From a virus: a stretch of 64,000 bases of DNA. The translations under genes and the position numbers were made by a program. Below are positions 14,813 to 57,298 of the stretch, piece by piece. The stretch is from positions 23,740 to 87,739 of IMG/VR virus record IMGVR_UViG_3300010399_000004, one strand, 5' to 3'. Positions within the stretch are counted from its first letter, which is position 1. Every line of letters starts with the position of its first letter. Below the pieces are notes generated by a model that saw only the letters and a program-made list of their open reading frames with translations, had not been told where the DNA came from and did no database searches.

Positions 14813-14818
14813 AGGGAT

Positions 14819-16376: not shown

Positions 16377-16377
16377 T

Positions 16378-16956
16378 ATGAATATGAAGGAGATAACCAT
16401 TGATGGTTTGAAAGCTCTGATTAGTTTGTCTGGGGATGATCCTACCCGCACAGGAATGGAAGAAACTCCAAACCGCTTTGTTAAAGCGTTCCTTGAGATG
16501 TGCAGCGGATATAAGGAGAATCCTTTAGATCATTTGCAGAAAGAATTTGATCTAAGTGATACTGGCGACGGCCATACGCCCTATGGGGGCATGATTATTT
16601 CTAAAGACATTCCCTTTGTCAGTCTTTGTGAGCATCATATGCTGCCGTTTCATGGAACAATTCATATGGGTTACATCCCCGGAGAATCAGGCAAAGTAGT
16701 GGGACTCTCAAAGCTGGCTCGTATGGCCGATGGTTATGCCAGGAGATTTCAAGTACAGGAAAGATTGACTCAGCAGATAGGTGACGGACTACAAAGTTTG
16801 AATCCACAGGGAGCTATCGTAGTGGTTCAAGCCCAGCACGCATGCCAATGTTTTCGTGGGGTTCGCAAATCGGGGAGCATGATCACTTCTGCGGTATATG
16901 GAGCTTTCAAAGAGCAACCTGCGAGGGAGGAATTCCTTACTTTGCTGCGTTTGTAG
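16378..16956 (+). CDS. folE: GTP cyclohydrolase I
   Basis: 192 aa from ATG 16378; a second ATG lies 6 nt later. Zinc ligands in SLCEHHMLPF and QHACQCFRGVR; GLSKLARMADGYARRFQVQE is the family signature. Makes dihydroneopterin triphosphate from GTP, the first step to preQ0. Last gene of the modification cluster, followed by a palindrome and the capsid operon promoter. Confidence 0.95.
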   Translation: MNMKEITIDGLKALISLSGDDPTRTGMEETPNRFVKAFLEMCSGYKENPLDHLQKEFDLSDTGDGHTPYGGMIISKDIPFVSLCEHHMLPFHGTIHMGYIPGESGKVVGLSKLARMADGYARRFQVQERLTQQIGDGLQSLNPQGAIVVVQAQHACQCFRGVRKSGSMITSAVYGAFKEQPAREEFLTLLRL

Positions 16957-40809: not shown

Positions 40810-40818
40810 TCCGGGAGT

Positions 40819-40835
40819 TTGAAAAGTTTTCAAAT
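40819..40835 (+). repeat. Palindrome copy 19 (perfect, central G)
   Basis: Ends 63 nt before the -35 of the AAA ATPase promoter. Confidence 0.95.
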
Positions 40836-40960: not shown

Positions 40961-43441
40961 ATGCAAATCAAAAACACCGCCGGCTTCAATGCCGCAATCC
41001 GCACACTCACGAACGCCGCCGTAGGCGTCATAATCGTTCAAACCAGGGAGCCCCACCGCACCCAGCAGGTTCTCCGGGAATTCACTTTCTCTGTCCGCAA
41101 AGCATTCCGCGTATGGGACTGCGTTTATGGATGGAGGCGATTTCCGGATTCCCCTGCCGGAAAAATCGAGCAGGACAAAACTCTGGACGCCTATGCGGCC
41201 CTCCGCAAGATCGCTGACTTGGACGGGGACGGACAGGCGCAATGGAATGATTGCATCTGCGTGATGCACTATCCGCACTGGGCACTGCCGAAGAATTTGG
41301 CGTTCATGCAGCTTCTCAAACATTACGTTCGACTGTTTACGGAATCCCAGCAGCGGCTGATTCTTTTGGTTCCAGAAGGATTTGAGCCTCCCGTCGAAAT
41401 CGCCAACGACGTTACCCTGGTGGACTTCCCCCTTCCTTCCCCGGAGGAACTTGGAGAGAGTTTGGGAAACGTTATTACTTCCTCCTTGGCGGAAGGGAGC
41501 AAAGGGGAGGTATATGGTGAAACAGAGCGGACCATTCTTGTCGGGAATGCCAGCGGGATGACGCAACTGGAAGCGGAGAATGCTTTCAGTCAGGCTATCG
41601 TCGCCAACAAAAAAACCTGGCCCCAAACCCCCTTCCAGGATTTCAATGATGTGCTCTTGGAGTGTAAGACTAACGTAGTCAAGCGCTCCAACGTTCTTGA
41701 GATGATGGACCCAGTGAATATTGATGAAGTTGGGGGGCTTGATTTATTCAAGTCATACATTAGGGTAAGGCATAAAGCGTTCACGCTAGAAGCCAAAGCT
41801 TTTGGGGTTGATATTCCTAACGGAGTTTTACTGGCCGGGCCGCCGGGATGTCTTTCGGCGGATACGCCGATGTTATATCTCCGGGGAATTCGTAATTCTG
41901 GACGCCATATACGTCTTGATGATTTGTTTGAAAAATTTAATGGGATAGCTTCAAACAATACTTGGGATCGTAGGATTCCAACCTATCTTCATTCTTTTGA
42001 TGCAAATACTGGCAAGGTATTTTATAACCGAGTTGTATCTGTAATTAACTCGGGGGTTAAAACAGTTATCCTATTAACTACGAAAGACGGCAGGCAACTT
42101 AAGCTCACTAATGATCATCCAGTTCTCACTACGGATGGATTTGTTGCTGCGGAACAACTTCAACCTGGAACAGAGATAATTGTTCGGGGGAGTATGAAAG
42201 CATCTCCTTCTGCTATGCGGTATGGCAGAAAACCTCGTGTAGTTATTGAGGGTTTGAAATACTATGCTTCTGGATGGAAAAAAATAGTAGAACACAATGG
42301 AATCATATACGAGTATCAACGGCAAAATCGCGCTCGGTTGGTAGTAGAAGCTCATATGAATAATCTTAGCTACGATGATTATATTTGGAGACTCAAAACC
42401 GATATGGAAGCCATCTGCCTTAAATACCTACCATCGGAAATGGTAGTTCATCACATAGACGAAAACCCGATGAATGATGAATTATCAAATCTTCAAATTA
42501 TGTTCAAACCAGACCATGATCGGTTACATATGGATGAGGAAAACTTCAACATAGAATATACTACGCTTGACTATGTTACTAATGTTATTTCTTATGGCGA
42601 GGTTCAAACCTATGATATTCAAATGGAATCTCCCGGAAACAACTTCGCCACTGCGGACGGGCTAATAGTCCACAATACCGGTAAGAGTTTAGTAGCTAAA
42701 GCTGTGGCAGGTGTCCTCCGCCTTCCGCTTATCAAGCTGGATATAGGCAAAGTATTTGCTGGTATCGTCGGTGAATCCGAATCCCGTATTCGCTCCGCAC
42801 TGAAACAAATTGAAGCTATGGAGCCGGCCGTTGTATTGATAGACGAGATTGACAAAGGGTTAGGGGGAGCGCATCAGAACGGGGGAGACTCTGGAGTGTC
42901 CAAGCGGGTTCTCGGAACCATCTTGACGCACATGCAGGAGTCAACCTCCAGAATTTATTGGATATTCACCGCTAACCGTGTAGAGGGACTTCCCCCCGAA
43001 CTTGTGAGGAAGGGGCGATTGGATGATGTGTTTTGTGTCTCCCTCCCCAACATTGTTGAGCGAATGGAAGTGCTCAAGATTCATCTTCGGAAACGCAAGC
43101 AGGACCCCGCAAAGATTCCAGACCTGAACAAAGCGGCGGTGGAATCGAAAGGCTATGTCTCCGCAGAAATTGAATCCGCAGTAGCGCAGGCTGTGCTTGC
43201 CGCTTTCAATGATAACATTCCCGTCACCGGTAATTTGATCGTGGCTCAACTGAAAAACATGAAGCCGCTGAGTGAAGCGTTCAAGGCTGATTTCGAGCGC
43301 ATGATGGAATGGGCACAGGATAATGCCCGAATGACATCCACCCCGCAGGAGGAACCCGCAGCGCTGCGGAACGCGGGCATCCCCCTTCCCGGCAAGCCCT
43401 CCCGCCGCGGAATGAACATGGACAAATCCAACAACAACTAA
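40961..43441 (+). CDS. Ycf46-like AAA ATPase, interrupted by an intein
   Basis: 826 aa precursor, 550 aa after splicing. The N-terminal half (VIIVQTREPHRTQQVLREF, VRKAFRVWDCVYGWRR) is the Ycf46-type regulatory region. The AAA core begins DEVGGLDLFKSYIRV; Walker A is GPPG-TGKS split by the intein, Walker B VVLIDEIDKGL, sensor FTANRVEGLPPELVRKGR with the arginine finger. Followed by DUF1257 and DUF2997 genes as in the cyanobacterial Ycf46 set. GC-rich codons suggest strong expression. Cellular role of the family is unclear. Confidence 0.8.
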   Translation: MQIKNTAGFNAAIRTLTNAAVGVIIVQTREPHRTQQVLREFTFSVRKAFRVWDCVYGWRRFPDSPAGKIEQDKTLDAYAALRKIADLDGDGQAQWNDCICVMHYPHWALPKNLAFMQLLKHYVRLFTESQQRLILLVPEGFEPPVEIANDVTLVDFPLPSPEELGESLGNVITSSLAEGSKGEVYGETERTILVGNASGMTQLEAENAFSQAIVANKKTWPQTPFQDFNDVLLECKTNVVKRSNVLEMMDPVNIDEVGGLDLFKSYIRVRHKAFTLEAKAFGVDIPNGVLLAGPPGCLSADTPMLYLRGIRNSGRHIRLDDLFEKFNGIASNNTWDRRIPTYLHSFDANTGKVFYNRVVSVINSGVKTVILLTTKDGRQLKLTNDHPVLTTDGFVAAEQLQPGTEIIVRGSMKASPSAMRYGRKPRVVIEGLKYYASGWKKIVEHNGIIYEYQRQNRARLVVEAHMNNLSYDDYIWRLKTDMEAICLKYLPSEMVVHHIDENPMNDELSNLQIMFKPDHDRLHMDEENFNIEYTTLDYVTNVISYGEVQTYDIQMESPGNNFATADGLIVHNTGKSLVAKAVAGVLRLPLIKLDIGKVFAGIVGESESRIRSALKQIEAMEPAVVLIDEIDKGLGGAHQNGGDSGVSKRVLGTILTHMQESTSRIYWIFTANRVEGLPPELVRKGRLDDVFCVSLPNIVERMEVLKIHLRKRKQDPAKIPDLNKAAVESKGYVSAEIESAVAQAVLAAFNDNIPVTGNLIVAQLKNMKPLSEAFKADFERMMEWAQDNARMTSTPQEEPAALRNAGIPLPGKPSRRGMNMDKSNNN
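41849..42676 (+). mobile_element. AAA ATPase intein with HNH endonuclease
   Basis: 276 residues from Cys1 (CLSADTPMLYLRG) to VHN before +1 Thr, inside the P-loop. Block B is TNDHPVLTTDG. An HNH motif (VVHHIDENPMNDELSNLQIM...HDRLH) makes up the endonuclease. The DNA is visibly AT-richer than the flanking gene, so it arrived recently. Confidence 0.9.
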
Positions 43442-43464
43442 TTGAAGGAAAGGAAATTTATACT

Positions 43465-44133
43465 ATGAAATCTGACTCACCTACGGTCCCCATTGAAACC
43501 GTTCTTGGAGCTATCAATGCTTCGGAAGGGAGCGGGAAGGCTTACCTGTTCCATTCTCCCCACGCACTTTCTGTGCGGGCGGGGGAAAAGGAAACTTACG
43601 CATCTACCGCGATGTCTGAATGCCCTTCTCTGGGCATCAAGGGTAGCGTTATCAAGCTTCCTGCCAGGAAAAATATTCGCACGGATATTGGCAAGGAGGT
43701 TTTTCAAACCACTCTGGTGCTAAAGGAAGGGGAGGTGTTCAAGGTGTTCGCGCAATCCTCCGCGCTGGGCGAACGTTGGAATCAGCGGGCACGGACCGCT
43801 TGCCAGTTCATTCGAGTGCGGGCTGATGCCCCGCTTAACAAGCTCCTGGTCAAGGTTCCGGGGACCATCAAAGATTCTACCTTTGAGCACTGGTTTATCC
43901 GCGGGCGGTTTGATGTTTTGACTTTGGCGCAAGCCGAAGAAATAGGTATCAATGTGCCCGAAGGGGTGCGGGATCATTTTCTCTCTATTCCGGTGGAAGC
44001 CTTGTTTGAGGTTGAAGAAATCGAAAAAGAGCGCCGGCCCGCAGCCGTAGCGGAAACTATCGTAAAGAAAGTAGGGGATCGTGCTATGACGATTGCCCGC
44101 CCTCGTCGTTCTCTTAATCTGGAACAGCATTAA
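43465..44133 (+). CDS. Hypothetical protein of the Ycf46-like operon, 222 aa
   Basis: Preceded by AAGGAAAGGAAAT at a usable ribosome-site distance. Beta-rich middle (VFQTTLVLKEGEVFKVFAQ) and an acidic helical C-terminus. No known family; GC-rich codons like the ATPase suggest co-expression. Confidence 0.6.
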   Translation: MKSDSPTVPIETVLGAINASEGSGKAYLFHSPHALSVRAGEKETYASTAMSECPSLGIKGSVIKLPARKNIRTDIGKEVFQTTLVLKEGEVFKVFAQSSALGERWNQRARTACQFIRVRADAPLNKLLVKVPGTIKDSTFEHWFIRGRFDVLTLAQAEEIGINVPEGVRDHFLSIPVEALFEVEEIEKERRPAAVAETIVKKVGDRAMTIARPRRSLNLEQH

Positions 44134-44160
44134 CGTTTGTAACCGGGGGAAACTTTGAGA

Positions 44161-44177
44161 ATTGAAAAGTTTTCAAA
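44161..44177 (+). repeat. Palindrome copy 20 (one change: first base A)
   Basis: Ends 8 nt before the -35 of the promoter at 44186. Confidence 0.85.
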
Positions 44178-44185
44178 GTTTTCCC

Positions 44186-44213
44186 TTTACAAAATATTCC
44201 TTTCGAGTATTCT
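44186..44213 (+). promoter_or_regulatory. Sigma70-like promoter of the DUF1257 gene
   Basis: TTTACA 44186-44191, 16-bp spacer ending CTTTCGAG, TATTCT 44208-44213. Nearly identical boxes occur at 48533 and 60983, each just after a palindrome. Confidence 0.75.
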
Positions 44214-44257
44214 TTCCCCGCAACCAAGAAGATCAACCTTTAACCTAAAATAAGCCA

Positions 44258-44776
44258 GTGTCGCACACAACTACGGTCCGTTCAGTCCCCATCAAATCCC
44301 GATCCGCTTTGCGGGCTGCGGTTGATGCCCTCCGCGCCAGCGGGGTGAATTGCGAACTTCTGCAAAATGCAGTCCCCCGGATGTTTTACCAGAATCAGAT
44401 TCGGGATCATATCCAAGCCAAGGCCCCGAACGCCTATCGGTTCCACAAAAATGCAGACGAATGCGATTTCGTTTTGCGCCTTCCCGGTTCTCGTTACGAT
44501 GTTGGATTTCTTACTGATGCCAAAACCGGTGACCTGGTTGCTCAGTTTGATGATTGGAGTAAATCCGTCAGCAGTATTCTCGGGGCCAAATTCAACGGTC
44601 CAGTGGAGCACTGGAGCGGCATGAAGGAAGATACAGAGCAGACCTTGCACAGCATCGGGAGGCTGCTCCAGGAATACACCAAGGCCGCAGTTATCGAAAG
44701 CGCAGCGCAGGAAGGCGTAAGCCTCCAATCCTGCGAGGTTGACAAGGAAGGGCGGCTGCAAATGGTTTTCGTCTGA
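44258..44776 (+). CDS. DUF1257 (Ycf35) family protein, 172 aa
   Basis: GTG start at 44258. MSHTTTVRSVPIKSRSALRAAVDAL matches the Ycf35 N-terminus (MSHxxTIKTxIxDxxxLxxAL), and RYDVGFLTDAKTGDLVAQFDDW is the family's YDIGFxxxxxGxYxLVxDWW core. C-terminus QSCEVDKEGRLQMVF also fits. With Ycf46 and DUF2997 genes it forms a known chromosomal trio of unknown function. Confidence 0.75.
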   Translation: MSHTTTVRSVPIKSRSALRAAVDALRASGVNCELLQNAVPRMFYQNQIRDHIQAKAPNAYRFHKNADECDFVLRLPGSRYDVGFLTDAKTGDLVAQFDDWSKSVSSILGAKFNGPVEHWSGMKEDTEQTLHSIGRLLQEYTKAAVIESAAQEGVSLQSCEVDKEGRLQMVFV

Positions 44777-44812
44777 GTCCCCGCATTTCAATTTAACCGA
44801 AACAAAATTATT

Positions 44813-45004
44813 ATGGACGGACAATTCAAAGTTACCATCGACCAGTGCGGGCGCATGACCTGGGAAGGCCAAAACTTCACCGGGCATTCCTGCAAGGAAT
44901 CTGCCGCCTTCCTGCGCCGTGTAGTCGAGGGGGCCAACCAAGTCACGGAAGACAAGCCGGAGCTTTACGCAGAGGAGCAGGAATCAATGGTGCAAACCAT
45001 CTGA
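44813..45004 (+). CDS. DUF2997 family protein, 63 aa
   Basis: FKVTIDQCGRMTWEGQNFTGHSCKESAAFL follows the DUF2997 pattern IxxxGxxxxEVxGxxGxSCxxxTxxLE. Acidic C-terminal tail. Third member of the Ycf46-Ycf35-DUF2997 set. Last protein gene before the RNA region. Confidence 0.7.
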   Translation: MDGQFKVTIDQCGRMTWEGQNFTGHSCKESAAFLRRVVEGANQVTEDKPELYAEEQESMVQTI

Positions 45005-45099
45005 TATTACTGATCCTCTTGACAAAATGCGGTCCGGGCCGCAGATTCAAATAAATCCGGAAGCCTGCGAGCAAAGCCGCAGGTAATGTTCTTTCTCAG

Positions 45100-45116
45100 T
45101 TTGAAAAGTTTTCAAA
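45100..45116 (+). repeat. Palindrome copy 21 (perfect, central G)
   Basis: Immediately upstream (6 nt) of the first tRNA-like element of the RNA cluster. Confidence 0.95.
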
Positions 45117-45122
45117 ATCAAT

Positions 45123-45195
45123 GCCAGTGAACAGTCACTGCTGTATTCAGCCGAGGCTGGACAGCAGGCAGGGTGCAAATCCCTGGCTGGCTCCA
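45123..45195 (+). tRNA. tRNA-like element with encoded CCA, anticodon arm replaced
   Basis: GCCAGT pairs with GCTGGC to make a 6-bp acceptor stem, followed by U73 and CCA at 45193-45195. The T arm is complete: 5-bp stem CAGGG/CCCTG with loop TGCAAAT. In place of the anticodon arm is a longer hairpin, GCTGT...ACAGC closing CAGC-CGAG-GCTG, and no D arm fits. Two nucleotides later the rRNA-like RNA starts, so it may act as a processing tag. Not a conventional tRNA by eye. Confidence 0.45.
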
Positions 45196-45196
45196 A

Positions 45197-45550
45197 TTTC
45201 TGGAATGTTGGCCTAGAAGCAGCCATCATCTAAGGAGTGACCCGTTGGGGTAACTATGTAAAACACCGAGTCGAGCGCACATTGGCTATTTATTAGCTTT
45301 AGATCGGTAGCGTGTCTGAAAAGATCACGTTGTAGTAAACAACCCACTAAGAAGCGCCTTGTCAAGTTGCGAGTGTCCGACGGCTGCGGCACTCAAGGTC
45401 TTTAGCGTAACAGCACACCAGAATTCGCCTTCCCGTTCTGTCCTTGCGCAGGGTAATCCTTGAGGATATCTCGGCAGCATCGAAACCTGTTAAGGTATGC
45501 CTGACAACGGTCAACTCGGCTTAGGAAATGCAGAACGGGGGGGGGGACAA
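45197..45550 (+). ncRNA. Structured RNA mimicking the 23S rRNA GTPase-associated centre
   Basis: 45201-45236 aligns with E. coli 23S 1055-1088: GGAATGTTGGC then TAGAAGCAGCCATCAT (16 identical). 45404-45418 (AGCGTAACAGCACAC) aligns with 1090-1104, including the loop of helix 44. Helix 42 is rebuilt by TTCTGG (45198-45203) with CCAGAA (45418-45423), using base pairs that differ from E. coli but still pair. The three-way junction is thus complete, with a ~165-nt hairpin-rich domain inserted before helix 44. A second domain follows, closed by CCCGTTCTG (45432) and CAGAACGGG (45531). Lies between tRNA-like elements; no protein gene overlaps. Confidence 0.85.
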
Positions 45551-45552
45551 TT

Positions 45553-45625
45553 GGTTGGGTAGTGTAATTAACACACCGCGGCTTAGTCCCGGAGATTGCT
45601 GGTTTAAGTCCAGCCCTGACCGCCA
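45553..45625 (+). tRNA. tRNA with encoded CCA; anticodon uncertain (TTA or TAG)
   Basis: Acceptor GGTTGGG/CCTGACC (7 bp with G-T pairs), D stem GTGT/ACAC with a 5-nt loop, T arm GCTGG-TTTAAGT-CCAGC, discriminator G and CCA at 45623-45625. The anticodon arm (576-592 in the 45 kb block) has one C-C mismatch and loop GCTTAGT. Taken at standard positions the anticodon is TTA with C33; a one-base shift gives TAG with U33. Confidence 0.65.
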
Positions 45626-45690
45626 ATTGCTATGGGTTTTACACCGTGAAACAGACCAGCTTGGCTACAAGCTGCATAGCGCAATTTTTT
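45626..45690 (+). terminator. Branched (three-way junction) terminator-like RNA
   Basis: ATTGCTATG (45626-45634) pairs with CATA-GC-GCAAT (45675-45685), enclosing two hairpins GTTT...AAAC and CAGCTT-GGCTAC-AAGCTG; a run of T follows directly to 45690. Begins one base after the CCA of the preceding tRNA. Confidence 0.5.
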
Positions 45691-45770
45691 GATATGAGGC
45701 GGGCACGGGGGATGGGTATCCCCGCCGATAGTGATATAGGAGTAAAGGGGTTCGAGTCCCCGCTAGTCTC
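45691..45770 (+). tRNA. tRNA-like element, cloverleaf unresolved
   Basis: A T-arm consensus GGGG-TTCGAGT-CCCC (45747-45761) and a hairpin GGGGAT-GGGT-ATCCCC (45708-45723) that could be an anticodon arm with GGG. I could not place a convincing acceptor stem or CCA, and the variable region would be about 22 nt. A degenerate or class II tRNA is possible. Confidence 0.3.
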
Positions 45771-45774
45771 TCAT

Positions 45775-45849
45775 TACAGGGAAGTGTAACGGATGCACAA
45801 AAGGCCCATAACCTTTAAGTAGCGAGTTCAATTCTCGCCCCTGTAACCA
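45775..45849 (+). tRNA. tRNA-Met (CAT), CCA encoded
   Basis: Complete cloverleaf: acceptor TACAGGG/CCCTGTA (7 bp, U1-A72), D stem GTGT/GCAC with loop AACGGAT, anticodon stem AAAGG/CCTTT with loop CCCATAA (anticodon CAT at 45807-45809), T arm GCGAG-TTCAATT-CTCGC, discriminator A, CCA. Position 33 is C instead of the near-universal U. Confidence 0.85.
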
Positions 45850-45852
45850 ATT

Positions 45853-45940
45853 TCGCAGTCTGCCGGGATTCAGGCAATGCGGTCCATAACCGCTTCCCGA
45901 TAGTTGGTTCCGTTACGCGGGACGCGCAGACTGCGAGCCA
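45853..45940 (+). tRNA. tRNA-like element with CAT loop but no normal T arm
   Basis: Acceptor TCGCAGT/ACTGCGA, extendable to 9-10 bp, ends GCCA. D stem TGCC/GGCA with a GG-containing loop. GCGG-TCCATAA-CCGC gives an anticodon arm with CAT and again C33. The T arm is missing: instead TCCCG and CGGGA enclose 18 nt. Possibly a decayed or specialised Met tRNA. Confidence 0.5.
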
Positions 45941-45944
45941 ATGC

Positions 45945-46115
45945 CCTGGGACGAAATAGGCCCAGGGGAAAACCAGGGGGAAATGCATGGTGCAAATCCG
46001 GCCGGAGGAGAAATCCTCCGTCGTCTAATCAGATAGGACACCCCCGCTAATTTGTTGGTAACGAGGAACAGTCCACCGCGGTTTGGTTACTCAGGTGGAC
46101 ACCACAAAGGCGGGG
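45945..46115 (+). promoter_or_regulatory. Cobalamin-riboswitch-like element
   Basis: The hallmark order AGGGGGAAA...GGTGCAAATCCGGC...GGACACCCCCGCTAAT resembles the AdoCbl riboswitch core (AGGGAA..GGTGxAAxxCC..CCCCGCxAC). A GAAA-capped hairpin CGGAGGA/TCCTCCG separates the two halves. Later, CAGGTGGACACC resembles the CAGgAgACC element, GTCCACC/GGTGGAC form a helix, and GTAAC (46058) can pair with GTTAC (46086) as a loop contact. CCCCGC at 46042 can also pair with GCGGGG of the terminator, allowing a switch. The regulated gene is unclear. Confidence 0.45.
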
Positions 46116-46156
46116 CTTCGTAGCCTGTTTGCGCGAAGTCCCGCCCCTTATTTTTT
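46109..46156 (+). terminator. Strong intrinsic terminator, possible switch partner
   Basis: GGCGGGGCTTCG (46109-46120) pairs with CGAAGTCCCGCC (46134-46145, one G-U), then a T run 46151-46156. Its 5' arm can alternatively pair with CCCCGC upstream. Confidence 0.85.
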
Positions 46157-46159
46157 AAT

Positions 46160-46242
46160 GGCCGGTTAGAAAGCCGGGGCGATTGCAACGTCTTCGGACA
46201 ACTCATGGATGGTTTGGGGTTCGACTCCCTGACCGGCCACCA
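46160..46242 (+). tRNA. tRNA-like element with encoded CCA, anticodon unresolved
   Basis: Acceptor GGCCGGT/ACCGGCC (7 bp perfect), discriminator A, CCA at 46240-46242; T arm TGGGG-TTCGACT-CCCTG; T8 present. The 47 nt between do not form a normal D or anticodon arm; they contain a GTC-TTCG-GAC tetraloop hairpin. 83 nt in all. Confidence 0.5.
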
Positions 46243-46252
46243 AACATTATTT

Positions 46253-46355
46253 GCGCACCCTGCCCGCCCTTCCTATTCTTGGTTTTCTTCTTGAGGAAGG
46301 AAACGGGCTAAGACCCCGAGCCGGCGGCGAACGCCGCGGGGTGCGCCCTATTTTT
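46253..46355 (+). ncRNA. Branched GC-rich RNA ending in a T run
   Basis: GCGCACCC (46253) pairs with GGGTGCGC (46339), enclosing hairpin GCCCG-n-CCTTCCT/AGGAAGG-n-CGGGC and hairpin CGGCG-GCGAA-CGCCG; TATTTTT follows. Same branched-stem-plus-T layout as 45626-45690, so either a terminator or a small stable RNA. Confidence 0.5.
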
Positions 46356-46359
46356 CATC

Positions 46360-46376
46360 TTTGAAAACTTTTCAAA
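46360..46376 (+). repeat. Palindrome copy 22 (perfect, central C)
   Basis: Ends 7 nt before the -35 of the promoter at 46384. Confidence 0.95.
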
Positions 46377-46383
46377 CTTTGGC

Positions 46384-46411
46384 TTGCAAAAGAAGTATTT
46401 TGTCTTATGGT
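46384..46411 (+). promoter_or_regulatory. Sigma70-like promoter of the groES leader
   Basis: TTGCAA 46384-46389, 16-bp spacer, TATGGT 46406-46411. Shares CTTGCAAAAGAAGTATTTTG with the promoter at 267. Confidence 0.6.
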
Positions 46412-46753
46412 AAGATTGCCTTCAATGGCTTCATTCCATTTCTACCATGAAGTAATTCCTAGAGAACCAAGTCGCGATTACCTTGGAACAGGGTACAACG
46501 GAGTCCTGCCTAAACCAAAGGCTCCAGATTAAAATATACTCACGGTCATACTCCCGAAAATGAACAAGCTTTGTATCCGAGGACCGGCGGCCCATGATCC
46601 GCCGGAAAGGCGATTGGTAAGTCCTTACAAGATTCGATAGGCTTATGACAAACGATGGAGCCAAACGCGGGCAGGTAATGGGATTTGGGCAGTAGGCGTG
46701 ACTTTGCTGGAGTTCAGAGAAAACCAGCACACTTTCCAGTTAACATACACACA
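46412..46753 (+). other. Long structured leader or small RNA upstream of groES
   Basis: About 340 nt without a credible gene. Hairpins: AATGG/CCATT, CCAAG/CTTGG, CAGG/CCTG, a perfect CCGGCGG (46584-46590) with CCGCCGG (46599-46605), GTAAG/CTTAC, and GCTGG/CCAGC just before the groES start. A minus-strand frame (46431-46730) is probably chance. Confidence 0.5.
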
Positions 46754-47026
46754 ATGAATACAGCACAAATTATCCCGCTATCCAACCGCCTTCTAATCGA
46801 AATGCTTCCCCGCGAATCTGTTTCTGCCGGGGGTATTCATTTTCCTGAAATGGCGCAAGTAACCGCAGAGTGGGGGAAAGTTTTGGCAACAGGATCGGAG
46901 GTTGAAGAGATTCAGGAAGGGGAGTTAGTATATTTAGCCCCCCGCAGCGGCACCCATTTCATTCTCGGGGGAGTGGATTACTTGGTAGTTCGGGAACATG
47001 AATGTCTGGCGCGCATTGTTGCTTAA
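46754..47026 (+). CDS. groES: GroES-type co-chaperonin, 90 aa
   Basis: PLSNRLLIEMLPRESVSAGGIHFP is the conserved GroES start, with the mobile-loop region, then EWGKVLATGSEVEEIQEGELVYLA and DYLVVREHECLARI. Full length. No groEL lies in the window, so it would cap the host GroEL to fold capsid proteins, as phage T4 gp31 does. Confidence 0.85.
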   Translation: MNTAQIIPLSNRLLIEMLPRESVSAGGIHFPEMAQVTAEWGKVLATGSEVEEIQEGELVYLAPRSGTHFILGGVDYLVVREHECLARIVA

Positions 47027-47044
47027 TCTCTGAAACAAACGAAT

Positions 47045-47371
47045 ATGAAACCAATCAAGTTTCCGGAGGCTTACGTAATTTTTGCTGAAAATCAGCCCGA
47101 ATATCAGCCCCTCCCTTCCTGGCAGAAACCCAACGATCCGCAGGGGGAAACTATTTTTTGTTGGAAGCTGACTTGGTGGGAAAGGATCAAGCTTCTGTTC
47201 ACCGGGAAGATATGGCACCGGGTTTATACTTTCAACAAACCTTTGCAGCCTCAGTTGTTGCAAGTTGAATATCCTTTTCTAAAGCAATCTACAGGGGGAC
47301 GTGTTAAGCCGTCAAATATTGAGCCTCCCCCACCAAGAAAAGCTTCCAGCCCATTCAAGAAAGCAGGTTAG
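47045..47371 (+). CDS. Hypothetical phage protein of the QPEYxPLP family, 108 aa
   Basis: NQPEYQPLPSWQ, FCWKLTWWERIKLLFTGKIWHRVYTFNKPLQPQLL follow a widely seen small phage family (QPEYxPLP..CWxLxxxERLxLLFTGRIW..PLQP). Basic Pro-rich tail. Function unknown. Confidence 0.6.
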   Translation: MKPIKFPEAYVIFAENQPEYQPLPSWQKPNDPQGETIFCWKLTWWERIKLLFTGKIWHRVYTFNKPLQPQLLQVEYPFLKQSTGGRVKPSNIEPPPPRKASSPFKKAG

Positions 47372-47374
47372 TGC

Positions 47375-47391
47375 TTTGAAAAGATTTCAAA
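47375..47391 (+). repeat. Palindrome copy 23 (one change)
   Basis: TTTGAAAAGATTTCAAA, 7 nt before the -35 of the next promoter. Confidence 0.85.
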
Positions 47392-47398
47392 CTGCGGC

Positions 47399-47426
47399 TT
47401 GACCTGAGGAAGACGAAGGGTATTTT
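47399..47426 (+). promoter_or_regulatory. Sigma70-like promoter
   Basis: TTGACC 47399-47404, 16-bp spacer, TATTTT 47421-47426; ATG at 47437. Confidence 0.6.
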
Positions 47427-47436
47427 TTCAGTCACT

Positions 47437-48408
47437 ATGAATCTGAAAAAACTATCCATCCTCGCTTTGTTGTTTTGGTTCCTACCTCTAGCCAGAGCGC
47501 AGGATCAAAAGGTATCAATGTCCGCCGACACTGGTGATTTCTCTGTAACGGTTAAAAACGTTGACATTGAAACTACGCAGACAATCGACATTCTTCTCCC
47601 CAAGAACTACAATTATCGGATTGATGCTGTTGAATCCGTTGTGGTTACTTCCCCGTCCGCGATTACTACGAGGGGGCGTATTGGACTCTCCAGCTATGAT
47701 GGCTCTACCGCTACAATTCTGCGTGGCACGGTTCCGGTTTACGCTACAGCGGCTACCCTAAGCGATTCTCTTTTTTCTGGCCGTGGTGGAAATGGTTATG
47801 CTTACCTGCAAAACATCGCTGCCGCTACTACATCTGGATTGATTACCCAGGTAGCTACACTGAACACTCCCGGCACTGCTACTATTACGGCGGCCATTAT
47901 TGCGGTTCCTCGAAAGCTGCGATTGGTCCTGGTGGATAACGCTGGGGCCAATCTGGCCGGCACGGTTACTCTTGTGGGAACGAATCAGCTTGGAGAAGTT
48001 ATTACTGAGATCATTACCGTGGTTGCCGGCACTGTGGCTTACGATACGGTTAACGCTTTTGCTTCACTTTCTTCCGTGGCTCACAACTTCGGGGTGTTGG
48101 GCCAGGTGACCGTGGACACGATGGACTTGGGTATGGATACCTCCCTTGCCTTGCCGGGCCGAAACGCGGAAGTGGTTAAGCTGGTCAGTGCGGGGACTGT
48201 AGAAGCCGCGGGAGCTTCTGACCCCGCAGTGGGCACGTTCGATCCCACCACGGCCCCGGACGGCTCTAAAGATTTTGAGGTTTGGTATCGTGTGGGGGGC
48301 AGTCCGCCCGTTATTCCTGGAGGAAGTTACGCCCGTCTTGTTATTACAGGTGCTACAGTCACAGGAGATGATGTTAGGACTTTGATTGTCAGAGGAACCC
48401 GATACTGA
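47437..48408 (+). CDS. Secreted beta-rich protein with own promoter and terminator, 323 aa
   Basis: Clear signal peptide (KKLSILALLFWFLPLARAQ) and then Thr/Val/Ala-rich sequence with no cysteine in the mature part, typical of beta-sandwich surface or virion proteins. Codon use is uniform and GC-rich like the capsid gene, so probably abundant. Monocistronic between promoter 47399 and terminator 48429. Could be an exported decoration or surface-exclusion protein. No family recognised. Confidence 0.65.
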   Translation: MNLKKLSILALLFWFLPLARAQDQKVSMSADTGDFSVTVKNVDIETTQTIDILLPKNYNYRIDAVESVVVTSPSAITTRGRIGLSSYDGSTATILRGTVPVYATAATLSDSLFSGRGGNGYAYLQNIAAATTSGLITQVATLNTPGTATITAAIIAVPRKLRLVLVDNAGANLAGTVTLVGTNQLGEVITEIITVVAGTVAYDTVNAFASLSSVAHNFGVLGQVTVDTMDLGMDTSLALPGRNAEVVKLVSAGTVEAAGASDPAVGTFDPTTAPDGSKDFEVWYRVGGSPPVIPGGSYARLVITGATVTGDDVRTLIVRGTRY

Positions 48409-48428
48409 TTCACTGCTGAAAAACCTTG

Positions 48429-48467
48429 AAACCCGGAGACTGCTGAAAGGCGGTTTCCGGGTTTTTT
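48429..48467 (+). terminator. Strong intrinsic terminator
   Basis: AAACCCGGA (48429-48437) with TCCGGGTTT (48456-48464), then T run. Confidence 0.9.
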
Positions 48468-48509
48468 GCGTCCAGGAATCGACGATTTGAACCGGGAAAT
48501 CGAAAAAAG

Positions 48510-48526
48510 TTTGAAAACTTTTCAAA
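48510..48526 (+). repeat. Palindrome copy 24 (perfect, central C)
   Basis: Ends 6 nt before the -35 of the promoter at 48533. Confidence 0.95.
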
Positions 48527-48532
48527 TTTCAC

Positions 48533-48560
48533 TTTACAAAAGAAGCCTTTCGAGTATTCT
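48533..48560 (+). promoter_or_regulatory. Sigma70-like promoter
   Basis: TTTACA 48533-48538, 16-bp spacer ending CTTTCGAG, TATTCT 48555-48560, then CGTAATCCAAA. Confidence 0.75.
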
Positions 48561-48593
48561 ATTCTCGTAATCCAAACCTCAATTCCAAAGCAA

Positions 48594-48839
48594 ATGAAAA
48601 AGATCGCTTACAGAACCCGCACTGGCCTTAATCAATTTCGCCCCGCTCCCATGAGCGAGGCTGCTTTCACCCGCCGTTCCGATGAATCGAAAGGCTTCTG
48701 CTTGGCTTGCGGCAAGACTGTGGAAGGGGTTGAGCCTGATGCCCGCAAATATACTTGCGAGTTTTGCAAGGCTCCCAAAGTTTACGGGCTGGAAGAATTG
48801 CTGATGATGGGATTGGTCAAAGTTTCTACCCACGCTTGA
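48594..48839 (+). CDS. Zinc-ribbon protein, 81 aa
   Basis: CLACGKTVEG and CEFCKAP form a two-knuckle zinc ribbon at residues 36-62, followed by a C-terminal helix GLEELLMMGLV. First gene of an operon that includes a DNA methyltransferase. Confidence 0.6.
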   Translation: MKKIAYRTRTGLNQFRPAPMSEAAFTRRSDESKGFCLACGKTVEGVEPDARKYTCEFCKAPKVYGLEELLMMGLVKVSTHA

Positions 48840-48842
48840 TCC

Positions 48843-49040
48843 ATGAACACACTTTCTGATCTTTCCAATGAACAAATTTGCTCCGAATGGATGCAGCAGG
48901 TTCTCCGGACAACCCGCCGAGAAGTAACTTTGGTTTACCGCCGAGGATGGTTTACGAGCAATTCAGGCGACAAAGATAGGCGAGCATTGATTGAAAATGC
49001 AATATTGGTCCTGCGAACCCGCCCAGACTGTGCAGATTGA
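48843..49040 (+). CDS. Small hypothetical protein, 65 aa
   Basis: Begins MNTLSDLSNEQICSEWM; basic, helical. 3 nt after the upstream stop. Unknown. Confidence 0.5.
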   Translation: MNTLSDLSNEQICSEWMQQVLRTTRREVTLVYRRGWFTSNSGDKDRRALIENAILVLRTRPDCAD

Positions 49041-49052
49041 TTCCCTTCTTCC

Positions 49053-49319
49053 ATGAATACCAAACACCCTGAACTTCTCGCAGCAGCTATTGTTTTTCAC
49101 GCCAAGGGGATGAGTCCTGATACTGCGGTTGAAGCCGCAATTGGCCAGCTTTACCGGAAGCGGTGTCGTGTATCAGACCGGGCTAAAGAAGCCCAAACTC
49201 TGAACGAAAAGATTTTGTATCAGCGGGCCGCAGCTTTACTTGAGGAAGAAAGGCGTGATTGCCGCGCTGATTATTTTAAGCTTGTCGACTGTGTTAAAGC
49301 CGCAGCAGTCCAAATCTAG
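49053..49319 (+). CDS. Small hypothetical protein, 88 aa
   Basis: Helical; begins MNTKHPELLAAAIVFHA, an Ala/Arg-rich protein. Unknown. Confidence 0.5.
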   Translation: MNTKHPELLAAAIVFHAKGMSPDTAVEAAIGQLYRKRCRVSDRAKEAQTLNEKILYQRAAALLEEERRDCRADYFKLVDCVKAAAVQI

Positions 49320-49333
49320 CCCCGCCCCTTCCC

Positions 49334-49693
49334 ATGAAAACACAACTCATCACTGTCCATCCGGACGGCTCCCTTTCTGGACTGCAATTCAAGAAGGGCG
49401 GGGTTAATCTCCAAAAGTTTGGTCCCGCCCGAACGGTCCGCATATCAGACGTTGAGTGGAGCGAGGAGCGTCAGTGCTGGCAAATAAAGTTTCTCCTGGG
49501 CACTCTGGTCGGCACTTACATGCGTTCGGTGGAAGCTCTGGACGTTGGAATGTCCCCGGCTAATTATGGGGCTCCGGACCCCCGAAATGGGGTGTTTGGA
49601 TTTGAAGATTACGATGCTGCCGTTGCGGCGGAGGTTGCATTCATTCAGGCAGCCCGCCTTCACGGAATGGAATATTTGGTCGGGGAAGCTTGA
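49334..49693 (+). CDS. Hypothetical protein, 119 aa
   Basis: Begins MKTQLITVHPDGSLSGLQFKK; beta-rich N-terminal half with WSEERQCWQIKFLLG. Unknown. Confidence 0.5.
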   Translation: MKTQLITVHPDGSLSGLQFKKGGVNLQKFGPARTVRISDVEWSEERQCWQIKFLLGTLVGTYMRSVEALDVGMSPANYGAPDPRNGVFGFEDYDAAVAAEVAFIQAARLHGMEYLVGEA

Positions 49694-49718: not shown

Positions 49719-51356
49719 ATGTCTGTCTCCTCTATTGTAAATCGCTTGAAGTCCGAAGATCAGGATTACGAATGGTATCCCACTACCAACGAAATAATCG
49801 AAGTCGTTCTGCGGGATATAAAGCTGGCGGAATACCCGCGGTGGAGAAGCCGACAATACAGCACAACCCTGGACAGCGTGTTGGATATCGGGGCTGGGAA
49901 TGGAAAGGTTCTATCCGCCTTCAAAGCCGCTGGATTCGGTTCCCTTTATGCTATCGAAAAGAGCACCATTCTTTGTGGTCTGCTCCCTTCTGATGTTTGC
50001 ATTATCGGAATGGATTTTCATGAGCAGACTTTTTACTCCAAGAATGTTGATTTGATTTTCTGCAATCCGCCTTACTCAGAATATGAAGCATGGGCGGTAA
50101 AGATCATTCGGGAAAACAATGCAATCGTTGTTTACCTGGTAATCCCCGAGCGCTGGAAAGATTCTGTGCCTATTCAGGATGCTTTGCGATTCCGGAATGC
50201 AAAGGCGAAGACTATTGGTTCCTTTGATTTCCTGTCATCGGAGGATCGCAGCGCAAGGGCCAAGGTCAATATCGTAAAGATAACGGGAAACGAAAGCAAG
50301 CAGGACGCTTTTGAACGGTTCTTTGAAGAGCAGTTTGCCCCGCTCTGTGATAAGTTCAAAAGCGGAGTAATTGAGCCCATAGAACGGAAGGGGGCCTTTG
50401 ATAAACTGGTTCCAGGAGAAAATTACCCAGCAATGTTGGTAGCTATCTATATGGATGAACTTGAACATATACGCCAGCAATACGAAAAGATAGGAGAGTT
50501 GGACCCCGTTCTGTTGAAGGAATTGAATGTCAGTCTTCCAATGGTTCGTGATGGTTTGAAGCTGAGGCTGGATGGCTTGCGCAATGATTATTGGCAGGAG
50601 TTGTTTTCCCGGCTTGAACCAATCACAGATCGTTTGACCGTTAAGAGCAGGGATCAAATCTTGAAACGATTGAATGCACACATCCAGGTTGATTTCACAG
50701 TTTCCAATATCCACGGAGTTTTGATATGGGTAATTAAGAACGCCAATGAGTATTTTGATGCTCAGTTATTGGATACCTATGAGTTGATGATCGACAAAGC
50801 GAACGTCTATCTTTACAAATCGAACGACAAGGTATTTGAGAAGCAGGGGTGGCGTTATCTTCGCAGCGAATCAACGGCTTCCCATTTTGCTTTGGATTAT
50901 CGAATCGTGATGCATACCTGCGGAGGGATGGCGCAGGAATACGAGCGATACTCCTGTCATAATACACATGGGCTTTCTCAGACCGCTTTCGATTTCATAC
51001 AGGACCTGGTTACGATTGCAAACAACCTCGGATACGCTGTGCGAAGATCACCCTACCTAATGTCCAGAGCCCCGGCTTGGAAGGGCGGGAAGCCTTATGT
51101 GTTCAATTATTCCAAGGATGGAGTTACAAAGGTTCTGTTTGAAGTGCGGGCTTTCAAAAACAGAAACATGCATTTTCGATTGTCTCAGGAGTTTGCACTA
51201 TCGTTGAATGTGGAATACGGCCGTCTGCGGGGATGGCTCAAGACCCCCGCGGAAGCCGCAGAGGAATTGAAAGACGAACGGGCAGTATCTGCTTTCAAGA
51301 GTAACAAACTCCTCCCCTTCTCCGCGGAGGAGAATCCAGCCCGATTGCTTCAATAA
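49719..51356 (+). CDS. Adenine-specific-type DNA methyltransferase with DUF4942 domain, 545 aa
   Basis: N-terminal MTase domain: motif I VLDIGAGNGKVL, motif IV FCNPPYSEYE (NPPY, N6-adenine or N4-cytosine type), VYLVIPERW. The C-terminal half is DUF4942 (DAQLLDTYELMIDKAN, EVRAFKNRNMHFRLSQEF, LNVEYGRLRGW). Such fusions are common in phages and plasmids and may methylate phage DNA against restriction. Its target site cannot be read from sequence. Confidence 0.85.
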   Translation: MSVSSIVNRLKSEDQDYEWYPTTNEIIEVVLRDIKLAEYPRWRSRQYSTTLDSVLDIGAGNGKVLSAFKAAGFGSLYAIEKSTILCGLLPSDVCIIGMDFHEQTFYSKNVDLIFCNPPYSEYEAWAVKIIRENNAIVVYLVIPERWKDSVPIQDALRFRNAKAKTIGSFDFLSSEDRSARAKVNIVKITGNESKQDAFERFFEEQFAPLCDKFKSGVIEPIERKGAFDKLVPGENYPAMLVAIYMDELEHIRQQYEKIGELDPVLLKELNVSLPMVRDGLKLRLDGLRNDYWQELFSRLEPITDRLTVKSRDQILKRLNAHIQVDFTVSNIHGVLIWVIKNANEYFDAQLLDTYELMIDKANVYLYKSNDKVFEKQGWRYLRSESTASHFALDYRIVMHTCGGMAQEYERYSCHNTHGLSQTAFDFIQDLVTIANNLGYAVRRSPYLMSRAPAWKGGKPYVFNYSKDGVTKVLFEVRAFKNRNMHFRLSQEFALSLNVEYGRLRGWLKTPAEAAEELKDERAVSAFKSNKLLPFSAEENPARLLQ

Positions 51357-54867: not shown

Positions 54868-55073
54868 ATACTTTACTTTTACTTAGAAAGCCAAGAATTC
54901 ATGTAGGGGTTACATTTTCGGAGAATGGAAATCATATACGTAAATATGAAGAATTTGATAGTAGAGATTCGGCTGCCAAAGGAATACGGGATGCAAGACA
55001 AAGGGGGGGATCGTTTATAGTAGTCTTAGTTCCCTCCGATTCATCATATGATAAAGTTACAAAATCTGTATGA
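54864..55073 (+). CDS. Small hypothetical protein, 69 aa
   Basis: ATGA overlap upstream and downstream. Begins MNTLLLLRKPRIHVG; compact alpha/beta look with SFIVVLVPSD. Unknown. Confidence 0.5.
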   Translation: MNTLLLLRKPRIHVGVTFSENGNHIRKYEEFDSRDSAAKGIRDARQRGGSFIVVLVPSDSSYDKVTKSV

Positions 55074-56350
55074 GCCTTGGCCGTCAATTTATTCAAGCGG
55101 TCATAAGGGATTCTACTCCCACGCTGCTTAGGCAGTCCGGGGTGGGATTGTTTCTGGAAGAGGAATTGGCTTTGTATCAATTCGTGGAAATGCATTATCT
55201 TGCACATCACGCATTGCCCGATTCTTCTGTGCTATCGGGGGCCGGGTTTCATTTACCCGCGCTTACCTCCTCGCAGCCTGTATCCTATTTCCTGACCAGA
55301 CTGCGGCAGCGGTTTATATACAATACGGTAGCTGGAAAGTTAACAACTCTTACAACGGCCCTGGCTTCTCAGGATACGGAGGCAATGGTTGATCTTTTGC
55401 GGGGGACGTTATCGGAGATTGGTTCCGCGGCGCATTCTCACTCTGTGGTTTTGATCGGGGATGAAATGGATGGAGTGCTTGATGACTTTGAGATAGCCAG
55501 AACCCACTTCGGTTTGCGGGGAATAACGATGGGTTGGCCTACGCTGGATGCGGCTACGCTGGGAGCTTCTGGGGGGGACTTGATAGTAATAGCCGGCCGG
55601 CCTGGGCTCGGAAAGTCATATGCGCTACAGGAGATGGCATATGCAGCGTGGCTCAACTCTCACCGCCTTCTATTTCTTTCGATGGAAATGGGTAAAAGGC
55701 AGATGAGTATAAGATGGTTGGGAAGACATACAAGATTGAACCCAAAGCTGATACGTTCTGGACAGCTTTCTCCCTGGGGCCGGCAAATGCTGCATGAAGG
55801 CGTTGCGCAGATAAAAGGAGCTACAGGGAGAATGTATTTGGAGAGCGGACAGGATACCCGCAAGGTATCGCAATTGGAGGCACTGGTGTTGCAGTATGGT
55901 CCGGAAGCCCTTTATGTGGATGCTGCTTACCTGATGAGTTCCGAGGGAAAGAAAAAGGGATATGTCAGCAGGTGGGAATCCCTTGCCGAAGTTATTGGAG
56001 AGTTGAAGGCGTTGGCTATCCGATTCAATATTCCTATCTTCATTACGGTTCAGTTTAACAGGAATCAAAAAAACCGCAGTATGCGTGGGGAGCCTGATCT
56101 ATCCGATATTGCAGGGACGGATTCCATTCCGCAGGATGCTTCTATTGTGTTGGGAATTCAGAAACCCCCTGCTCCCCATGCGGATAACAGAAGGATCATG
56201 ACCATGATGAAAAATCGGGAGGGCGATCTATGTCGCTTTCTTTATAGGTATGAATTCCAGCCCGTAAACTTTGAAGAGCTTCCCTGGGAGGCTATGGAAC
56301 CTGATGAAGAAACGGAAGCAGAGGAAGCCGGAACTGCTTGGCAGCAATAA
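55070..56350 (+). CDS. dnaB: DnaB-like replicative helicase, 426 aa
   Basis: N-terminal helical domain, then RecA-type motor: Walker A VIAGRPGLGKSYAL, FLSMEMGKRQM (H1a), ALYVDAAYLMS (Walker B area), IPIFITVQFNRN (H3) and DASIVLGIQKP. Unwinds DNA at the fork; loaded by the preceding gene product. Confidence 0.88.
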   Translation: MSLGRQFIQAVIRDSTPTLLRQSGVGLFLEEELALYQFVEMHYLAHHALPDSSVLSGAGFHLPALTSSQPVSYFLTRLRQRFIYNTVAGKLTTLTTALASQDTEAMVDLLRGTLSEIGSAAHSHSVVLIGDEMDGVLDDFEIARTHFGLRGITMGWPTLDAATLGASGGDLIVIAGRPGLGKSYALQEMAYAAWLNSHRLLFLSMEMGKRQMSIRWLGRHTRLNPKLIRSGQLSPWGRQMLHEGVAQIKGATGRMYLESGQDTRKVSQLEALVLQYGPEALYVDAAYLMSSEGKKKGYVSRWESLAEVIGELKALAIRFNIPIFITVQFNRNQKNRSMRGEPDLSDIAGTDSIPQDASIVLGIQKPPAPHADNRRIMTMMKNREGDLCRFLYRYEFQPVNFEELPWEAMEPDEETEAEEAGTAWQQ

Positions 56351-57160: not shown

Positions 57161-57298
57161 ATGAAGACCAAACTTAAGAAAGAACCATTCATCAGTGACC
57201 CTGTTTATGCATTTTTGGCAAGTAAGTGTCCTGCGTTTGCAAGGGACCTTAAACGGGTGCTTGCAAACCAAAAAAAGCGGACTGAAAAAGCAGACTAA
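57161..57298 (+). CDS. Small basic protein, 45 aa
   Basis: MKTKLKKEPFISDPVYAFL... ending KKRTEKAD. Very basic, single helix. Its TAA overlaps the polymerase ATG (TAATG). Possibly translationally couples the polymerase. Unknown family. Confidence 0.5.
   Translation: MKTKLKKEPFISDPVYAFLASKCPAFARDLKRVLANQKKRTEKAD

What the first reader, a model, noticed from the sequence alone, without database searches (positions are those of the whole stretch)
40961..45004. Phage copy of the Ycf46-Ycf35-DUF2997 gene set
AAA ATPase with Ycf46-like N-terminal part, a DUF1257 (Ycf35) protein and a DUF2997 protein occur in order, with one unknown gene between. This trio is known from cyanobacteria and other bacterial genomes without firm function. 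High GC codon use in the ATPase and the two genes after it suggests strong expression. It lies next to the rRNA-mimic cluster.
Basis: partly seen in the sequence, partly recalled or inferred. Interest (0 to 1): 0.7.

Follow-up and report, generated by a model that had tools for sequence, protein, structure and literature searches.

The report
Phage Ycf46-type ATPase cassette with intein
This phage carries a conserved five-gene set, built around a protein-remodelling motor related to poorly understood chloroplast and cyanobacterial genes, beside its DNA-copying genes; the motor gene is split at its ATP-binding site by a self-splicing element, and bacteria related to known hosts of such phages lack the set.

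Summary
In detail: ORFs at 40961-43441 (AAA ATPase), 43465-44133 (unknown), 44258-44776 (DUF1257) and 44813-45004 (DUF2997).

The ATPase contains a 276-aa HNH intein (41849-42676) that splits the Walker A motif (GPPG^TGKS), so ATPase activity should depend on protein splicing. Inteins sit at the same site in three other relatives of this ATPase, and a group I intron interrupts Walker B in another. Intein and extein relationships conflict, which indicates lateral homing.

The set is larger than a trio. ATPase, unknown G2, DUF1257, DUF2997 and G5 (49334-49693) occur in the same order in 17 of 17 phage lineages, followed by DnaB in 16 of 16 and PolA in 15 of 15 that could be checked. These ATPases form one clade (100/99). 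DUF1257 was absent from 240 sampled genomes of two host groups, so this is not a recent host copy. In Planctomycetota and other phages the same families occur with DUF3150.

Best reading: an AAA+ protein-remodelling machine with dedicated small partners, probably serving replication; the mechanism is inferred. Adjacency to the RNA cluster is a 4.3-kb insertion peculiar to this phage. Codon GC is not exceptional. Verdict: new variant of a known, functionally uncharacterised gene set.

The parts
40961..43441 (+). Ycf46-type AAA+ ATPase precursor (826 aa): degenerate N-terminal AAA-like half, then the catalytic AAA module interrupted by an intein
   Evidence: Pfam AAA 2.9e-24; N-half homology to bacterial ATPases beside DUF1257; catalytic motifs intact
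40961..41848 (+). N-extein (296 aa), ending in the first half of Walker A (GPPG)
   Evidence: alignment with intein-free ATPases of other phages; GC3 0.60
41849..42676 (+). Intein, 276 aa: Cys1, block-B TNDH, C-terminal His-Asn, +1 Thr; splits Walker A
   Evidence: TIGR01445 intein_Nterm above cut-off; Pfam Intein_splicing 1.6e-8, 35.0 bits, just below the 35.8 cut-off; matches solved inteins; exact insertion in alignment; GC3 0.33
42407..42544 (+). HNH homing-endonuclease motif inside the intein
   Evidence: PHROG HNH 2.2e-9; Pfam HNH_3 2.9e-4, below cut-off
42677..43441 (+). C-extein: rest of Walker A (TGKS), Walker B DE, sensor 1 N, two arginine fingers
43465..44133 (+). G2, 222 aa, mostly beta-strand in the predicted model, no known family; conserved second gene of the phage cassette
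   Evidence: present in 17 of 17 lineages; no Pfam, PHROG or NCBIfam match; model pLDDT 80 without PDB match
44258..44776 (+). DUF1257 (Ycf35-type) protein, 172 aa, GTG start, near-invariant M-S-H N-terminus
   Evidence: PF06868 24.6 bits vs 22.2; alignment A5; start codons; model pLDDT 84
44813..45004 (+). DUF2997 protein, 63 aa, with the invariant Cys of the family
   Evidence: PF11211 18.8 bits, below cut-off; homologues above cut-off; invariant Cys
49334..49693 (+). G5, 119 aa, fifth member of the cassette, displaced by a 4.3-kb insertion
   Evidence: phrog_38408 7e-17; adjacent to DUF2997 in the 16 other lineages; homologues in Planctomycetota
45005..49333 (+). Insertion peculiar to this genome between DUF2997 and G5: tRNA-like RNA cluster, Cpn10-like gene and others
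   Evidence: gap 4330 bp here, 219 bp or less elsewhere; Rfam tRNA x2; Cpn10 3e-12
40818..40834 (.). TTTGAAAAGTTTTCAAA palindrome upstream of the ATPase (one of 31 in the window)
44161..44177 (.). Same palindrome (1 mismatch) upstream of the DUF1257 gene
55070..56350 (+). DnaB-type replicative helicase; conserved downstream neighbour, with PolA at 57298-60963
   Evidence: synteny

Best explanation
This is a phage-owned, vertically maintained five-gene module (ATPase, G2, DUF1257, DUF2997, G5). How it most likely works: (1) The 826-aa precursor excises its intein by ordinary class-1 protein splicing, which rebuilds Walker A (GPPG-TGKS); only the spliced protein can bind ATP. (2) The spliced ATPase forms an AAA ring of the Cdc48/FtsH type, with a catalytically dead AAA-like N-terminal half. 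(3) DUF1257, DUF2997, G2 and G5 are dedicated partners (adaptors or regulatory subunits, perhaps a first substrate). The near-invariant but flexible M-S-H N-terminus of DUF1257 is a candidate handle for the ATPase or a target, and the invariant Cys of DUF2997 a candidate thiol or metal site. (4) The machine remodels or disassembles a protein complex during phage DNA replication. (5) The intein is a separate selfish passenger that homes into P-loops with its HNH nuclease. Shown by sequence: gene identities, conserved order, splice-junction residues, intact catalytic motifs, intein mobility signature, and synteny with DnaB/PolA. Inferred: that splicing occurs, ring formation, physical partnership, and the replication role. 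The stated confidence is for an ATP-driven remodelling machine with these partners; the replication target alone I put near 0.3.
For: Order and strand conserved in 17 of 17 phage lineages; DnaB downstream in 16 of 16 and PolA in 15 of 15 that could be checked. One clade of ATPases, 100/99. In group-A phages G-x-[PS]-G-[TS]-G-K-S, Walker B DE, sensor-1 N and both arginine fingers are invariant, 19 of 19. Invariant Cys of DUF2997; M-S-H start of DUF1257 in nearly all homologues, in a low-confidence stretch of the model. Intein: removal restores Walker A exactly; inteins at the same site in L031, L053 and L098; incongruent identities (window/L031 inteins 49%, exteins 35%; L031/L053 inteins 38%, exteins 52%); GC3 0.33 vs 0.58-0.60. 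Related inteins enter the P-loop of other phage ATPases. Replication link outside group A: in a 316-kb phage a Ycf46-type ATPase precedes, by sequence, a DnaC-like ORF, then DnaB; group-B sets lie near ParB and a sliding clamp in L054.
Against: No direct evidence for complex formation, for a substrate, or for when the genes are expressed. Neighbourhood beside replication genes could reflect module order (between lysis and replication) rather than function. Pore-loop 1 mostly has Leu/Val, not the aromatic residue of strong unfoldases. In cyanobacteria DUF2997-DUF1257 sit with a ferredoxin instead of the ATPase, which points to redox or Fe-S. Neither DUF1257 nor G2 resembles a solved structure. 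The degenerate-AAA reading of the N half rests on weak signals (hhalign E 0.01).
Confidence: 0.5

Rival explanations
1. Fe-S or redox machine: the set supports assembly, repair or electron delivery to an iron-sulphur or radical enzyme; in cyanobacteria a ferredoxin completes it, and the phage borrows a host ferredoxin.
For: DUF2997-DUF1257-ferredoxin in the seven cyanobacterial loci with E about 1e-45 examined and in the literature (PMC4284462); a radical-SAM 4Fe-4S gene beside the trio in L071; invariant Cys in DUF2997; ycf35/ycf46 retention linked to marine, iron-poor red algae (PMC5940233); glutaredoxin and ribonucleotide reductase genes in phage RHph_I4.
Against: No ferredoxin or radical-SAM gene beside the set in the phage loci inspected; only one conserved Cys; DUF1257 has no conserved Cys.
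Confidence: 0.2
2. Host-takeover or counter-defence segregase: the ATPase and its adaptors pull apart a host complex (defence, transcription or replication).
For: AAA segregase architecture; the sampled host groups lack DUF1257, so the set gives the phage something its host lacks.
Against: Cassette is core and syntenic in all 17 lineages, whereas anti-defence genes usually vary; PADLOC matches are only generic AAA similarity to IetA.
Confidence: 0.15
3. Host-derived auxiliary genes that support photosynthesis or carbon metabolism.
For: Ycf46/Ycf35 names come from plastids and cyanobacteria.
Against: Known hosts are Rhizobium, Pseudomonas and Aeromonas; the phage ATPases are a separate clade; DUF1257 absent from 240 sampled relatives of two host groups.
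Confidence: 0.03
4. Ribosome- or RNA-linked machine together with the neighbouring RNA cluster.
For: The RNA cluster starts about 100 bp after DUF2997, and the same palindrome precedes the ATPase, DUF1257, the cluster and the Cpn10-like gene.
Against: The RNA cluster is in an insertion found only here; the other 16 lineages have no such gap and ARAGORN finds no tRNA in their fetched flanks (note that ARAGORN also misses the window's own tRNAs). Rfam finds tRNA, not rRNA. The palindrome occurs 31 times.
Confidence: 0.05

Closest known systems
Ycf46-type AAA ATPases of cyanobacteria, Myxococcota and Planctomycetota (loci L061-L068)
   Same: Full-length homology including the non-catalytic N-terminal half; same AAA motifs; DUF1257 next door in L061-L063, L065, L067
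   Different: Phage ATPases form their own clade; this one carries an intein; none of the bacterial relatives has the G2 gene
DUF1257 (PF06868, Ycf35) and DUF2997 (PF11211)
   Same: Family matches, M-S-H N-terminus, invariant Cys
   Different: Cyanobacteria pair them with a ferredoxin; the window DUF1257 has an extra internal stretch of about 25 aa
Phage cassette in Rhizobium phages L338C and RHph_I4, Aeromonas phage HJ05, Pseudomonas phages SM1 and PaMx31
   Same: Same five genes, order and position before DnaB and PolA
   Different: Intein-free ATPase; no 4.3-kb RNA-bearing insertion; SM1 has an extra gene before DUF1257
Group-B phage and Planctomycetota sets: ATPase, DUF1257, DUF2997, DUF3150 (some with G5)
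   Same: Shared core of ATPase, DUF1257, DUF2997 and in some G5
   Different: Have DUF3150 and lack G2; DUF3150 is absent from the window genome
HNH-containing P-loop inteins of phages; HNH inteins of mycobacteriophage ThyX
   Same: Same intein blocks and HNH region; P-loop insertion as known for phage TerL (PMC5050341)
   Different: Insertion between GPPG and TGKS of a Ycf46-type AAA ATPase; I found no report of this host protein

Membership tests
DUF1257 (PF06868) | Pfam score above gathering cut-off | tested here: met
   24.6 vs 22.2 bits
DUF1257 (PF06868) | M-S-H N-terminus shared by phage and bacterial homologues | tested here: met
   GTG-coded M-S-H-T in the window; nearly all homologues share M-S-H
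DUF2997 (PF11211) | Pfam score above gathering cut-off | tested here: not met
   18.8 vs 24.1 bits. Syntenic homologues score 24.5, 34.9 and 33.2, so homology is clear while the formal cut-off is missed
DUF2997 (PF11211) | Invariant Cys after G-[FY]-x-G | tested here: met
   window NFTGHSC; 39 of 39 rows, one of them a spurious frame
Ycf46-type AAA ATPase | Catalytic AAA domain with Walker A/B, sensor 1, arginine fingers | tested here: met
   (after intein removal)
Ycf46-type AAA ATPase | Homologous N-terminal half | tested here: met
Ycf46-type AAA ATPase | Direct match to plastid Ycf46 itself | not tested
Class 1 intein | Cys1, block-B TxxH, C-terminal His-Asn, +1 Cys/Ser/Thr | tested here: met
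   C1, TNDH, HN, +1 T; TIGR01445 35 vs 24.5 bits
Class 1 intein | Clean insertion relative to intein-free homologues | tested here: met
Class 1 intein | Actual protein splicing | not testable with these tools
   needs expression
AAA-DUF1257-DUF2997-DUF3150 gene set | DUF3150 gene present | tested here: not met
   0 matches at E <= 1 in the 87.7-kb record; the record may be incomplete
Known anti-phage defence system | Specific PADLOC match | tested here: not met
   only generic AAA similarity to IetA/TRIP13

The most novel reading that the evidence does not exclude
Ycf46, Ycf35 (DUF1257) and DUF2997 are parts of one ancient ATP-driven remodelling machine. In phages it is a core, replication-linked module of five genes, switched on in this phage only after protein splicing rebuilds the motor's P-loop; the same biochemistry would explain the plastid and cyanobacterial genes.
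Probability: 0.25. Interest if true: 0.8.

Novelty: new variant of a known kind. Interest (0 to 1): 0.6.

Why it matters
Ycf46 and Ycf35 have been carried as unexplained reading frames in plastid genomes, and DUF1257/DUF2997 still have no assigned function; the open full-text search found three papers that name either DUF and none on phages. Finding the set as a core, syntenic module of phages of Pseudomonas, Rhizobium and Aeromonas, in host groups where sampled genomes lack DUF1257, gives simple systems in which single genes can be removed and the target found. The P-loop intein adds a second test: activity of the motor should depend on splicing, and four related ATPases with inteins at one site plus a group I intron at Walker B mark this gene as a preferred homing target, as conserved phage genes often are.

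Tried and rejected
- Structure route: AlphaFold models of DUF1257 (pLDDT 84) and G2 (pLDDT 80) gave no convincing PDB match (best VIA Z 4.6 and 3.5).
- NCBIfam, PHROGs and PADLOC give no function for G2, DUF1257, DUF2997 or G5.
- Single-sequence DUF1257 viral scan found nothing; the alignment query worked.
- DUF3150 as a missing member in this phage: not found.
- Start codons ATC (L007) and ATA (L031) at the DUF1257 start, GTG in the window: most others use ATG, so I dropped a translational-control idea.
- Promoter scan gave one weak sigma-70-like site, fewer than shuffles.
- 'Strong expression' from GC3: many genes are equal or higher.
- Chance adjacency: rejected by synteny.
Full report
Observation. 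Pfam gives AAA for 40961-43441 (2.9e-24), DUF1257 for 44258-44776 (24.6 bits, cut-off 22.2) and a sub-threshold DUF2997 match for 44813-45004 (18.8 bits, cut-off 24.1); 43465-44133 has no family. Homologues at the same positions in other phages pass both DUF cut-offs. The window is 23740-87739 of an 87.7-kb IMG/VR virus record.

The missed intein. Aligned with ATPases of other phages, the window protein has one clean insertion of 276 aa (41849-42676) between GPPG and TGKS; removing it restores GPPGTGKS. It starts with Cys, has TNDH in block B, ends VHN before Thr, passes the TIGR01445 intein cut-off, matches solved inteins, and contains an HNH motif. Its GC3 is 0.33 against 0.60 and 0.58 for the flanking exteins. 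Two other cassette phages (L031, L053) have inteins at the same site, and a group-B relative (L098) a fourth. Window and L031 inteins are 49% identical although their exteins are 35%; L031 and L053 exteins are 52% identical but their inteins 38%. The sister of the window ATPase (L007) and that of L031 (L024) have none. This is the signature of lateral homing. Relatives of the intein interrupt the P-loops of other phage ATPases, including RecA-like proteins. In L052 the ATPase gene is instead cut at Walker B by a group I intron with an HNH gene (sub-threshold Rfam match, E 1e-8). P-loop inteins as such are well known in phages (PMC5050341).

The cassette. DUF1257 homologues occur in 17 records of cultured phages (Pseudomonas, Rhizobium, Aeromonas). 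Annotated neighbourhoods and viral-contig scans show the order ATPase, G2, DUF1257, DUF2997, G5 in 17 distinct lineages (window included), with DnaB downstream in the 16 where the fetched DNA reaches that far, and PolA in the 15 where it reaches PolA. The fifth gene in the window is 49334-49693. ATPase-to-DnaB distance is 3.7-5.7 kb elsewhere and 11.6 kb here, largely because a 4.3-kb stretch with the tRNA-like cluster and a Cpn10-like gene lies between DUF2997 and G5. A free-standing HNH-like ORF sits between DUF1257 and DUF2997 in L007 (by sequence).

Not a host copy. In a maximum-likelihood tree of 68 ATPases the 19 group-A phage rows form one clade (100/99); bacterial and group-B phage rows lie outside it. 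PF06868 has no match in 119 genomes of the Pseudomonas family and 121 of the order of a Beijerinckiaceae genome (which should include Rhizobium), but matches 26 of 112 Myxococcota and 50 of 98 Cyanobacteriota genomes. The sampled group names follow from the loci used as centres, as the tool does not print them.

Bacterial and other-phage counterparts. Myxococcota have ATPase-DUF1257-DUF2997. Cyanobacterial loci have DUF2997-DUF1257-ferredoxin, as reported (PMC4284462), or ATPase-DUF1257. Planctomycetota (L064, L066) have DUF1257, DUF2997, ATPase, a DUF3150 relative (hhalign 2.8e-14) and G5. Group-B phages have ATPase-DUF1257-DUF2997-DUF3150 and some also G5. DUF3150 is not found in the window genome. 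One Myxococcota locus adds a radical-SAM 4Fe-4S gene.

Mechanism. Walker A (G-x-[PS]-G-[TS]-G-K-S), Walker B DE, sensor-1 Asn and both arginine fingers are invariant in the 19 group-A rows, so the spliced protein should be an active ATPase of the Cdc48/FtsH kind. The N-terminal half is homologous to that of the bacterial enzymes and shows weak, collinear similarity to the catalytic half, consistent with a dead AAA domain. DUF1257 keeps an M-S-H start that the model leaves flexible; DUF2997 keeps one Cys. ATPase and G2 genes overlap in SM1, and DUF1257 and DUF2997 genes in HJ05, which suggests coupled expression. I infer a remodelling machine with dedicated partners, most likely serving DNA replication because of the constant place before DnaB and PolA and because in L027 a Ycf46-type ATPase precedes a DnaC-like ORF (by sequence) and DnaB. 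The redox rival rests on the ferredoxin and radical-SAM neighbours in bacteria. Neither is shown.

Literature. Three papers in the open library name either DUF, none about phages; ycf35 and ycf46 appear in plastid papers, one linking them to marine, iron-limited habitats. The genome record of RHph_I4 already labels DUF1257 and DUF2997 genes, so the occurrence in phages is in the databases, but I found no description of the module or of its intein. Searches were limited to open-access papers.

Noticed in passing
window, 31 sites, e.g. 40818-40834, 44161-44177, 45100-45116, 46360-46376: Palindrome TTTGAAAASTTTTCAAA occurs 31 times (0.5 matches expected by chance), often near gene boundaries; looks like a genome-wide operator or similar element.
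   Followed up: partly
window 8593-10992: Terminase large subunit gene carries an intein with a LAGLIDADG endonuclease (GK^A...THN^S); it lacks Cys1 and shows Trp/Cys/Thr residues suggestive of a class 3 intein (class not tested).
   Followed up: partly
window 57298-60963: Family A DNA polymerase has an intein-like insertion (NFGL^CIAEGQ...LVSN^CYGM) absent from relatives; with TerL and the ATPase this would make three inteins in one phage.
   Followed up: partly
window 45100-46260: Cluster of tRNA-like sequences: Rfam finds two tRNAs (45553-45622, 45775-45846) and a weak third (45696-45770), ARAGORN none; further tRNA-like halves by eye, e.g. 46161-46241. No rRNA family match.
   Followed up: partly
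window 46685-47026: Cpn10 (GroES)-like protein beside the RNA cluster, Pfam 3e-12.
   Followed up: no
window 13296-16956: QueC (2e-36), with QueE- and FolE-like neighbours by eye: suggests a 7-deazaguanine DNA or RNA modification pathway.
   Followed up: no
window 49719-51356: Possible DNA methyltransferase with a DUF4942 domain (5e-9) directly after G5.
   Followed up: no
L052 8898-9829: Group I intron with HNH gene inside a Ycf46-type ATPase gene at Walker B.
   Followed up: yes
L097, L100, L101, L102, L105, L106: Relatives of this HNH intein inserted at or next to the P-loop of unrelated phage ATPases (RecA-like, helicase-like, another AAA): an intein family that appears to target P-loops.
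   Followed up: partly
L007 8507-9047: Free-standing HNH-like ORF inserted between DUF1257 and DUF2997; the DUF1257 ORF there appears to start at ATC (ATA in L031).
   Followed up: partly
L044 11954-13471, L047 9610-11241: Reverse-transcriptase gene next to the DUF3150 gene in group-B phages (Pfam-tested in L047 only).
   Followed up: no
L071 7265-10506: Bacterial trio followed by a radical-SAM 4Fe-4S gene and an Hsp70-like gene.
   Followed up: no
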